This document shows, piece by piece, positions 9,461 to 60,633 of a DNA stretch of 64,000 nt (positions are counted from its first letter, which is position 1; each line of letters starts with the position of its first letter). The notes below the pieces were generated by a model. That model saw only the letters and a program-made list of their open reading frames with translations. It was not told where the DNA came from and did no database searches. The stretch is from contig NZ_CP091092.1 in the NCBI RefSeq assembly GCF_029633915.1, forward strand, positions 2,356,001 through 2,420,000, given 5' to 3'. The translations under genes and the position numbers were made by a program. This DNA comes from Methanomicrobium antiquum (lineage in GTDB: Archaea; Halobacteriota; Methanomicrobia; Methanomicrobiales; Methanomicrobiaceae).

Positions 9461-9698
9461 AGACAAGAAAGGAAAGATTAAAAAAAATATACTCATAAAG
9501 TTAAGATATCAGATAAATAATATTCAGGGAATACTTTATTCTGGTATATCTTAAATAAATATTACAGGATAAGACCTGCAGAGAAAAGTATTGGAAAATC
9601 AAATTTTGGATGACTGGTTTTAAAAACCAATGATTATCATACGAAAACGTTTATGAAAACGTTCATGAAATTTTCATTTCATGCTAACTGTTTCATGT

Positions 9699-9715
9699 AA
9701 GTTACGAAGTAACTT
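9699..9715. repeat. Dispersed short palindrome, copy 2 (CATGTAAGTTAC type)
   Basis: AAGTTAC-gaa-GTAACTT is a perfect 7-bp inverted repeat preceded by TTTCATGT, and further CATGAAA-type palindromes lie just upstream (9641-9685). It is about 45 bases before the GTG start of the PH-like/zinc-ribbon gene and could be part of its leader. Confidence 0.65.
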
Positions 9716-13007: not shown

Positions 13008-13267
13008 AACACAAAGTAAAACAAACCGGGAGAAACTAAAAAAAAATGGTTCTTCTCCATTTTTCTGAAAGATAGGACTATCCAAAAAGAGAAACAACTT
13101 AGAGAATAACCTCCAAATATGATGATATGTCCAATAAACATTACAAATGGAGGGAATGCATTTCTGCATTCACATCTATGTTCTCATTTGTGGGCTTTTA
13201 AGATTATTGATATGGAAGATTTCATCAGTTTCTTAGGTTACTGGCCTTGACTGGAAGACAATCAAAG

Positions 13268-13431
13268 ATAATCGATTATTAGCAAGGGAGGGGACAGGCC
13301 CCTCCCTTAAACCCGCCCCGCTTACGATAGGTCACCGGAGGGGGGCTAAGCCCCTCCGGTTCCCGGGGATATTGTGTACATCGCGACAAATCAATTCCAA
13401 ATTAGGGTGATCAGAAATATGGCGAAGAGTC
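13268..13431. repeat. Dispersed two-hairpin element, copy 1 (full)
   Basis: The element starts with the palindrome ATAATCGATTAT (13268-13279). Hairpin A is a 10-bp stem (13284-13293 with 13299-13308) and hairpin B another 10-bp stem (13334-13343 with 13351-13360). It ends in a conserved box reading ATTCCAAATTAGGGTGATCA and then GGCGAAGAGTC. Full copies recur at 59729-59898 and 60420-60633 and a 3' half at 24310-24396. Stem bases differ between copies but stay paired. It lies in a 520-bp gap with no gene. Orientation of any transcript is unknown. Confidence 0.9.
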
Positions 13432-13527
13432 AAAAAAATATGATAATTAAAGCAAAGGCATATTCAAAATATTAATTAAATTAAAGAAACTGGAAAATTT
13501 CCTTCTCTTTTGTATCTTTGGATTTTT

Positions 13528-24097: not shown

Positions 24098-24309
24098 GTG
24101 AATAATATATCTATCGATATTAAAGAGTTATGCAGGTATACAAATGAAGAATATATATCTTTAATTCAGATAGGTTATGTCTATTGTCAAAAAATCTTAA
24201 CATTTATTCCCAGAGTAGATTCCTTAAAAGACTATCCTTCCCATGGAATAGATCACTCTGTTAGAATAATTGAATATATAAATAAATTTATAACTTCTTT
24301 TGAAGTTGA
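24098..24309 (+). pseudogene. Truncated HD-domain phosphohydrolase-like gene
   Basis: The frame starts at GTG 24098 and reads about 70 residues that end in KDYPSHGIDHSVRIIEYINKFI, the opening histidine-containing region of an HD-domain metal phosphohydrolase (HGIDHS supplies the first ligands). At 24310 the sequence switches abruptly to the 3' half of the dispersed two-hairpin element, and the frame ends in it at 24370. The remaining HD residues are absent, so this is a gene remnant from a deletion or insertion event. HD proteins of this kind often hydrolyse nucleotides, but this fragment cannot. Confidence 0.7.
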
Positions 24310-24396
24310 GCTAAGCCCCTCCGGTTCCCGGGGATATTGTGTACATCGCGACAAATCAATTCCAAATTAGGGTGATCAGAAATATGGCGAAGAGTC
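24310..24396. repeat. Dispersed two-hairpin element, 3' half (copy 2)
   Basis: These 87 bases are identical to bases 13345-13431 of copy 1, starting inside the loop of hairpin B and ending at the GAAGAGTC terminus. The 5' half, including hairpin A, is missing. The junction with the truncated HD gene is at 24309/24310, so the element marks a deletion or recombination point. Confidence 0.92.
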
Positions 24397-59728: not shown

Positions 59729-59898
59729 AATAATCCATTCGATTATTAGCAAGGGAGGGGGACACCCCCTCCCCTGGACCCTCCCCTGCTCAGGATAGGT
59801 CACCAGAGAGAGGGGCGAGCCTCTCTCTGGTGCCCGGGGATGTTTTTTTACATCGCGTCAATTCCAAATTAGGGTGATCAGAAATATCGCGAAGAGTC
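59729..59898. repeat. Dispersed two-hairpin element, copy 3 (full)
   Basis: It begins with AATAATC/GATTATT (59729-59747). Hairpin A pairs 59753-59761 with 59765-59773 around ACA. Hairpin B pairs 59802-59813 with 59820-59831 around GGCGAG. It ends with the conserved TTCCAAATTAGGGTGATCAG box and GAAGAGTC. Hairpin B reads ACCAGAGAGAGG/CCTCTCTCTGGT, versus ACCGGAGGGG/CCCCTCCGGT in copy 1. Confidence 0.92.
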
Positions 59899-60056
59899 CT
59901 TTGTAACTTACATGAAACTGCTGGCATAAAAAAAATTTATCATGGACGTTTTCATAGGAACCGGTATTCAGTATTGATACTATGCGCTTTTCCTGCTGAG
60001 GGATATATTTATCCATAATGCTTAGATATATTTCTGTTTAACAGAGGAGTCTTTCT

Positions 60057-60242
60057 ATGCAGTCGGTAAAAGAGAAGATGAAAGAGATAATATATTCGCA
60101 ACCCGATGATTCATCATTTGAAGAGATTATACGGGAGTTAATATTTGAACGTATGATGAAAAGGGGTCTTTTGGATTCGCAAAACGGAAGGGTAATCTCC
60201 AACGCAGAGATGAAAAGCCGGATCAAATCATGGCAGAGATAG
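60057..60242 (+). CDS. Antitoxin-like small protein
   Basis: The 61-residue protein has a helical, charged sequence with FEEIIRELIFERMMKRGL and ends GRVISNAEMKSRIKSWQR, similar to the DUF-type antitoxins that carry a NAEMKxR-like motif in RelE/ParE pairs. The toxin start overlaps its end by 13 bases, as usual for such pairs, but the toxin is truncated (60230-60301). An orphan antitoxin is therefore what is left. The start ATG at 60057 has GAGGAG 10 bases upstream. Confidence 0.65.
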   Translation: MQSVKEKMKEIIYSQPDDSSFEEIIRELIFERMMKRGLLDSQNGRVISNAEMKSRIKSWQR

Positions 60243-60301
60243 TATGGACAGAAGAATCTGAGCGCTTACTTCATAACATCTTTTTTAAATTTTGTTTGTG
60301 A
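60230..60301 (+). pseudogene. Truncated ParE/RelE toxin
   Basis: ATG 60230 opens with MAEIVWTEESERLLHNI, the usual start of ParE-type toxins, then diverges after about 17 residues into FFKFCL and a stop at 60299-60301. The downstream DNA resembles the sequence at 59441-59480 (TTTGTGAAGAT(A/G)TTCAA), so a repeat-mediated deletion probably removed the toxin's main part. Confidence 0.6.
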
Positions 60302-60388
60302 AGATGTTCAACGAACTAATATTCAACTGTTAATGACTTTTTTTATTCACTGCTTATGAAACAAAGGTTTCATGCAACAGTTTCATGT

Positions 60389-60405
60389 AAGTTACGAAGA
60401 AACTT
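60389..60405. repeat. Dispersed short palindrome, copy 5
   Basis: AAGTTAC-gaa-GAAACTT preceded by TTTCATGT matches the copy at 9699 except for one base. It lies immediately before the fourth dispersed two-hairpin element; a half copy in the opposite orientation (GTAACTTACATGAAAC) lies immediately after the third one, at 59903-59918. Confidence 0.55.
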
Positions 60406-60419
60406 TCATCTAAATTTTA

Positions 60420-60633
60420 AATAATCAATTCGATTATTGCAAGGGAGGGGGACGCCCCCTCCCTTGAACCCTCCCCCTGCTCAAGATAGGTCACCAGAGG
60501 GAGGGGCGAGCCTCCCTCTGGTTCCCACTGTTGCCCGTTGTGTATATCGCAACGAAACAATTCCAAATTAGGGTTATTAGAAATATGGCACAGAGTCTCC
60601 AAATTAGGGTTATTAGAAATATGGCGAAGAGTT
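60420..60633. repeat. Dispersed two-hairpin element, copy 4 with duplicated 3' box
   Basis: The layout matches copies 1 and 3: AATAATC/GATTATT (60420-60438), hairpin A 60441-60451 with 60455-60465, and hairpin B 60493-60504 with 60511-60522. The final box is present twice (ending at 60597 and again at 60633). The stem of hairpin B is ACCAGAGGGAGG/CCTCCCTCTGGT, a third paired variant. It ends 9 bases before the stop of the ATPase gene. Confidence 0.92.

What the first reader, a model, noticed from the sequence alone, without database searches (positions are those of the whole stretch)
13268..13431. Dispersed ~160-bp element with covarying hairpins
Four copies (13268-13431, 24310-24396 partial, 59729-59898, 60420-60633) share 5' and 3' conserved boxes and two GC-rich hairpins. 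Hairpin B is ACCGGAGGGG/CCCCTCCGGT in copy 1, ACCAGAGAGAGG/CCTCTCTCTGGT in copy 3 and ACCAGAGGGAGG/CCTCCCTCTGGT in copy 4; hairpin A varies likewise. Bases change on both strands together, so pairing is kept. It is the most unusual element in the window, and could be a mobile non-coding element or a family of structured RNAs. No transposase or gene is inside.
Basis: seen in the sequence. Interest (0 to 1): 0.82.

Follow-up and report, generated by a model that had tools for sequence, protein, structure and literature searches.

The report
Archaeal ISL3-type MITE with covarying hairpins

Summary
The repeats, hairpins and paired base changes are real, but the boundaries and the "no transposase inside" claim are wrong. 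Copy 1 is the right part of a 384-bp element (window 13048-13431) with ISL3-like inverted ends and an 8-bp target duplication (AAAAAAAT on both sides). Fifteen near-identical full copies and one 662-bp relic lie in this genome, each with an 8-bp duplication (two with one or two mismatches). The relic encodes an ISL3 transposase HTH domain (Pfam E=4e-12). It is an ISL3-family MITE; no ISL3 transposase remains in the genome. Copy 2 is a fragment of it; copies 3 and 4 are diverged right ends. The two hairpins form a ~90-nt module absent from Rfam and found only in Methanomicrobiales. It lies inside ISL3 elements, one intact with its own target duplication, and stands alone as intergenic repeats (at least 68 in one genome). 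Covariation is very strong, including compensatory changes between orthologous copies. G·T mismatches are no commoner than A·C, and all 16 MITEs point with the replication fork. Both favour a DNA hairpin over a conserved RNA. The MITE is a new member of a known kind; the module is a new variant, REP-like but without GTAG tags or RAYTs. Its function is inferred, not shown.

The parts
13040..13047 (.). left 8-bp target-site duplication AAAAAAAT
   Evidence: identical 8-mer at 13432-13439
   Evidence: 15 full copies of 382-384 bp at 95-99% identity in the genome
13048..13068 (+). left terminal inverted repeat GGTTCTTCTCCATTTTTCTGA
   Evidence: imperfect inverted match to the right end; bounded by the duplication in all copies
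13219..13266 (+). remnant of the transposase HTH domain (ISSVS.VTGLDWKTIK)
   Evidence: same stretch in the longer relic L027 hits Pfam HTH_Tnp_ISL3 at 4.3e-12
13281..13366 (+). two-hairpin module (covariance models R1/R2)
   Evidence: R2 72.6 bits, E=5e-14
13284..13308 (+). hairpin A: AAGGGAGGGG ... CCCCTCCCTT
13310..13319 (+). unpaired C-run AACCCGCCCC; with hairpin A's 3' arm its complement has a G-quadruplex motif
   Evidence: 4 C-runs of 3 or more in 79 of 101 copies
13326..13336 (+). conserved motif GATAGGTCACC at the foot of hairpin B
13334..13360 (+). hairpin B: ACCGGAGGGG ... CCCCTCCGGT
   Evidence: covarying helix
13411..13431 (+). right terminal inverted repeat TCAGAAATATGGCGAAGAGTC
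13432..13439 (.). right 8-bp target-site duplication AAAAAAAT
   Evidence: 100% identical to copy 1's right end
   Evidence: R2 86 bits; 81% to copy 1; no left end found
   Evidence: R2 93 bits

Best explanation
Copy 1 is a 384-bp non-autonomous transposable element (MITE) made by internal deletion of an ISL3-family insertion sequence. It was moved in trans by an ISL3 transposase that cuts at the ~21-bp inverted ends and duplicates 8 bp of AT-rich intergenic target; that transposase is no longer found in this genome. (Shown: ends, duplications, transposase remnant. Inferred: trans mobilisation.) The two hairpins are a ~90-nt module carried near one end of several ISL3-type lineages in Methanomicrobiales and also dispersed on its own as REP-like intergenic repeats. 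(Shown.) The module most likely acts as DNA: its strand folds into two hairpins when single-stranded, on the lagging-strand template at replication forks. Pairing is kept by selection on the DNA hairpins and/or by hairpin-templated correction. The fork-linked orientation reflects how the element inserts or which orientation is tolerated. (Inferred.) It is more a hitchhiking or packing feature of intergenic DNA than a regulatory RNA. (Inferred.)
For: Fifteen full copies of 382-384 bp, 95-99% identical, each with an 8-bp duplication (13 exact, L015 with one mismatch, L023 with two). A 662-bp relic with duplication AATAGTTT and an HTH_Tnp_ISL3 domain, E=4.3e-12. Eight bp is the classical ISL3 duplication length (PMC7643977). 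In G015 the module starts 14 nt after an ISL3 transposase stop codon and is followed by the right inverted repeat; in G148 an intact 1403-bp element (403-aa transposase, duplication ATCAAATA on both sides) carries it between left end and start codon, antisense. PF01610 is absent from G000. At least 68, 52 and 35 copies in three species of one genus, mostly without ISL3 ends. Strong covariation. Orthologous copies at fixed loci: 22 double changes against 6.7 expected, 17 paired in both species. G·T against A·C in well-paired columns: 38 vs 44 and 49 vs 53. Orientation with replication: 16 of 16 MITEs and 20 of 20 hits in G000, 40 of 56 in G007, 12 of 13 in G021, with cdc6 taken as origin. MITE orientation is not set by genes: 4 same, 6 opposite in tandem gaps.
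Against: The origin is inferred from cdc6; GC skew supports it only weakly. The bias is absent in G167 (2 of 5), and in G007 it may partly follow gene direction. Conserved unpaired parts (hexaloop GRCRAG, GATAGGTC, C-run) could mean a bound protein or an RNA. ISL3 elements without the module exist (G011), so it is not needed for transposition. No transcription, nuclease-probing or transposition data are available.
Confidence: 0.7

Rival explanations
1. The module is a conserved structured RNA (3'-UTR element, terminator or small RNA) that regulates the transposase or neighbouring genes.
For: Strong covariation and a conserved loop and motif. It sits just after the transposase stop codon in G015 and often 5-80 nt after a gene end in genus g3, with 57 of 105 copies between convergent genes.
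Against: Stems show no excess of G·U-type pairs over A·C, unlike selected RNA helices. No significant strand preference in unidirectional gaps (23 vs 15, p=0.26). Opposite strand relative to the transposase in G148. Kept in MITEs that have no gene to regulate. No Rfam match.
Confidence: 0.2
2. The covariation is a neutral by-product: long GC-rich palindromes are repaired by template switching at forks, so arms stay complementary without any function.
For: Strand-symmetric mismatch pattern, fork-linked orientation and compensatory changes at fixed loci are all expected from hairpin-templated correction.
Against: It does not explain conservation of unpaired parts (loop GRCRAG, GATAGGTC, C-run), nor the spread of the module in several ISL3 lineages and as separate copies.
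Confidence: 0.3
3. They are bacterial-type REP or REPIN elements moved by RAYT (Y1) transposases, or IS200/IS605-type decoys.
For: Hairpins, intergenic and convergent placement, and orientation with the lagging strand resemble REP and IS200/IS605 behaviour.
Against: No Y1_Tnp in G000, G007, G021 or G010. No GTAG or CGTC tag at the stem foot. The full element has DDE-type inverted repeats and 8-bp duplications, which Y1 elements do not make.
Confidence: 0.04
4. The finding is an ordinary remnant: the hairpins are just the 3' end of one insertion sequence copied within one genome.
For: In this genome 15 copies are one recent burst.
Against: The same module covaries across many genomes of the order and 101 aligned copies, most of them away from ISL3 ends.
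Confidence: 0.03

Closest known systems
ISL3-family insertion sequences and their MITEs (IS204/IS1001/IS1096/IS1165 group, Pfam PF01610/PF13542/PF14690)
   Same: Inverted ends of the GGCTCTTC type, 8-bp target duplication, ISL3 HTH remnant, and module-bearing relatives with an intact ISL3 transposase (PMC7643977).
   Different: A conserved covarying two-hairpin module sits near one end; no description of this was found in the papers searched. The transposase itself is missing from the genome.
REP / BIME / REPIN repeats of bacteria (GTAG and CGTC families, PMC3733652)
   Same: Small GC-rich palindromic repeats in many copies, mainly between convergent or unidirectional genes, often in pairs (PMC3733652).
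   Different: Two hairpins with a C-run and GATAGGTC motif, no GTAG or CGTC tag, no RAYT transposase in the copy-rich genomes, archaeal, and linked to a DDE transposase family.
Insertion sequences with end-encoded structured RNA (IS200/IS605 omega RNA, IS110 bridge RNA)
   Same: A structured non-coding segment lies between the transposase gene and one end.
   Different: DDE-type ISL3 element, no Y1, TnpB or DEDD enzyme involved, position and strand vary between lineages, and mismatch pattern does not point to RNA. The comparison with these systems is from general knowledge.

Membership tests
ISL3-family MITE | 8-bp target-site duplication | tested here: met
   15 of 15 full copies (13 exact, one with one mismatch, one with two) plus the 662-bp relic
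ISL3-family MITE | terminal inverted repeats of ISL3 type | tested here: met
   GGTTCTTCTCCATTTTTCTGA vs GACTCTTCGCCATATTTCTGA (imperfect); intact ISL3 elements of relatives have GCCTCTTC../GGCTCTTC.. ends
ISL3-family MITE | internal sequence derived from an ISL3 transposase gene | tested here: met
   HTH_Tnp_ISL3 E=4.3e-12 in the relic; same codons in the 384-bp copies
ISL3-family MITE | autonomous partner in the same genome | tested here: not met
   no PF01610 match in G000; not a strict requirement, since the partner can be lost
ISL3-family MITE | mobilised in trans by the ISL3 transposase | not testable with these tools
   needs a transposition assay
REP/RAYT elements | GTAG or CGTC tag at the foot of the hairpin | tested here: not met
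   consensus foot is GATAGGTCRC
REP/RAYT elements | cognate Y1 (RAYT) transposase in the genome | tested here: not met
   none in G000, G007, G010, G021
REP/RAYT elements | many palindromic copies between convergent/unidirectional genes | tested here: met
   57 convergent, 38 unidirectional, 10 divergent
structured RNA family (Rfam type) | helices supported by compensatory changes | tested here: met
   22 of 23 pairs; orthologous copies
structured RNA family (Rfam type) | G·U tolerated in helices above A·C mismatches | tested here: not met
   38 vs 44 and 49 vs 53
structured RNA family (Rfam type) | match to a known family | tested here: not met
   no match at gathering score in the window; best sub-threshold hit in loci E=0.04
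structured RNA family (Rfam type) | transcribed | not testable with these tools
   no expression data

The most novel reading that the evidence does not exclude
A previously undescribed archaeal mobile DNA-hairpin module that rides inside ISL3 transposons and has seeded dozens of stand-alone intergenic copies. It is read as single-stranded DNA on the lagging-strand template, so that insertion or survival is locked to the direction of the replication fork.
Probability: 0.3. Interest if true: 0.68.

Novelty: new variant of a known kind. Interest (0 to 1): 0.5.

Why it matters
Archaeal MITEs and palindromic repeats are little described (PMC10969869 lists only a few archaeal cases). Here a covarying hairpin module is shared between a DDE transposon family and a REP-like repeat family, in genomes where no RAYT (Y1) transposase was found. 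The mismatch test separates DNA hairpins from RNA helices. The fork-linked orientation makes a testable prediction about how ISL3 elements choose their orientation. It also warns that covariation in dispersed repeats is not by itself evidence of a functional RNA.

Tried and rejected
IS200/IS605 or RAYT origin, suggested early by orientation bias and hairpins: rejected by inverted repeats, 8-bp duplications and absence of Y1 transposases. Alternative small hairpin GYGA-UAGG-UCRC: read by eye in some copies, not consistent in the window's own copies, not pursued. Automatic search for paired ends plus 8-bp duplications around the dispersed copies gave 1 of 101 against 3 of 501 in the control; it used at most 3 mismatches and so misses the window's own imperfect ends; replaced by an end-motif count. 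Rfam at relaxed threshold gave only a weak, sub-gathering hit. Virus and plasmid collections gave nothing. No paper describing the repeat was found.

Full report
WHAT WAS CHECKED. Aligning the flanks shows a unit of 382-384 bp. In the window it runs 13048-13431, with the 8-mer AAAAAAAT on both sides. All 15 full copies have 8-bp duplications, nearly all different AT-rich 8-mers: 13 are exact, L015 has one mismatch and L023 two. The ends are an imperfect inverted repeat: GGTTCTTCTCCATTTTTCTGA on the left, and GACTCTTCGCCATATTTCTGA as the reverse complement of the right. All 15 lie between genes.

WHAT THE UNIT IS. A longer copy (L027, G000:605834-606495, 662 bp, duplication AATAGTTT on both sides) contains broken reading frames whose pieces match the ISL3 transposase helix-turn-helix domain (PF13542, E=4.3e-12). 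Eight bp is the classical duplication length of ISL3 elements (PMC7643977). So copy 1 is an ISL3-family MITE. No ISL3 DDE transposase (PF01610) is found in the genome, so the family is at present an orphan. Copy 2 is an 88-bp right-end piece, 100% identical to copy 1. Copies 3 and 4 are 77-81% identical, share only the right part with the right inverted repeat (doubled in copy 4), and have no left end or duplication that could be found. Three similar copies ending at the right inverted repeat lie in G138.

THE HAIRPIN MODULE. A covariance model of the ~90-nt core (23 base pairs) found matches in 35 of 199 genomes of the order at E<=0.001, strong ones (E<1e-8) in six genera. In the wider class, matches at E<=1e-4 lay only within the order. 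An exact pattern scan of 84,980 species genomes gave 15 stretches, all from Methanomicrobiaceae or Methanogenium records, and viral and plasmid collections gave none. Over 101 aligned copies, 22 of 23 pairs change on both sides, 249 cells against 52 in shuffles. Between orthologous copies at fixed loci in three species of one genus, 22 double changes are seen against 6.7 expected (none of 2000 permutations as high), 17 of them paired in both species. Unpaired parts are conserved too: a hexaloop GRCRAG, the motif GATAGGTCRC, and a C-run whose complement, with hairpin A, makes a G-quadruplex motif in 79 of 101 copies. No Rfam family matches.

WHERE THE MODULE SITS. In G015 it starts 14 nt after the ISL3 transposase stop codon, followed by the right inverted repeat; G009 has the same order with a decayed transposase. 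In G148 an intact 1403-bp ISL3 element (403-aa transposase, duplication ATCAAATA on both sides) carries it between the left end and the start codon, on the opposite strand. In genus g6 (probably Methanoculleus; name inferred, not verified) some copies sit next to another ISL3-type end (7 of 28, control 0). In genus g3 it is stand-alone: at least 68, 52 and 35 copies, essentially none with ISL3 ends, mostly between convergent genes (57 of 105; 23 same and 15 opposite strand in unidirectional gaps; 10 divergent), and often followed by other palindromic repeats. ISL3 elements lacking the module exist in G011, so the module is optional cargo.

RNA OR DNA. If an RNA helix were selected, G·U would be tolerated and A·C would not, on the transcribed strand. 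In columns at least 80% paired, G·T and A·C are equally rare (38 vs 44; 49 vs 53). This symmetry points to DNA. Orientation points the same way: taking cdc6 as the origin, all 16 MITEs (p=3e-5) and all 20 hits in this genome run with the fork, as do 12 of 13 in G021 and 40 of 56 in G007, but not the few in G167 (2 of 5). In this genome the orientation is not explained by neighbouring gene strand (4 same, 6 opposite in tandem gaps). GC skew supports the origin only weakly. By general knowledge the co-oriented strand is the lagging-strand template, the one most exposed as single strand.

MECHANISM. Shown: transposition as a unit with 8-bp duplications, ISL3 ancestry, covarying module inside ISL3 elements and outside them, orientation bias given the inferred origin. 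Inferred: movement in trans by an ISL3 enzyme now lost; action of the module as single-stranded DNA hairpins at forks; pairing kept by selection and/or hairpin-templated correction. The last alternative would produce compensatory changes without function, and is the most serious rival for the meaning of the covariation. A regulatory RNA remains possible but has evidence against it.

NOVELTY. The MITE is a new member of a known kind. The module is REP-like in placement but lacks the GTAG/CGTC tags and the RAYT transposases (PMC3733652), and is tied to a DDE transposon family. I rate it a new variant of a known kind, interest 0.5.

Noticed in passing
window 59899-60399: A 501-bp segment bounded by 25-nt inverted repeats (92%; CTTTGTAACTTACATGAAACTGCTG) begins exactly after the last base of copy 3; the same motif recurs at 9688-9705 on the minus strand with one mismatch. 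Possibly another small mobile element.
   Followed up: partly
window 24098-24370: The MITE fragment (copy 2) ends a short ORF of 90 aa, which looks like a truncated gene.
   Followed up: no
L037, L102, L113, L119 and other G007 loci, 40-80 nt after the module: Further palindromic repeat families follow the module: CCCGGCCGAGGCTACCCGGATGGGTAGCGTCCAGGCCGGG and CCGAAGGGCTTCGCCCTTTCGAAACC..GGCGACCTTCGGTCACCGG; one copy in this genome (L143) is followed by similar sequence.
   Followed up: no
alignment A5, hairpin B of genus g3 copies: About half of the copies carry the same internal T·C / C·T mismatches in hairpin B, as if a fixed internal loop were kept.
   Followed up: no
L008 (G042) 1240-1400: Upstream of an ISL3-type right end in another family of the order lies a different pair of GC-rich hairpins with GATAGGTC-like and GGTCACC motifs, perhaps a distant relative of the module; R2 did not report it.
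   Followed up: partly
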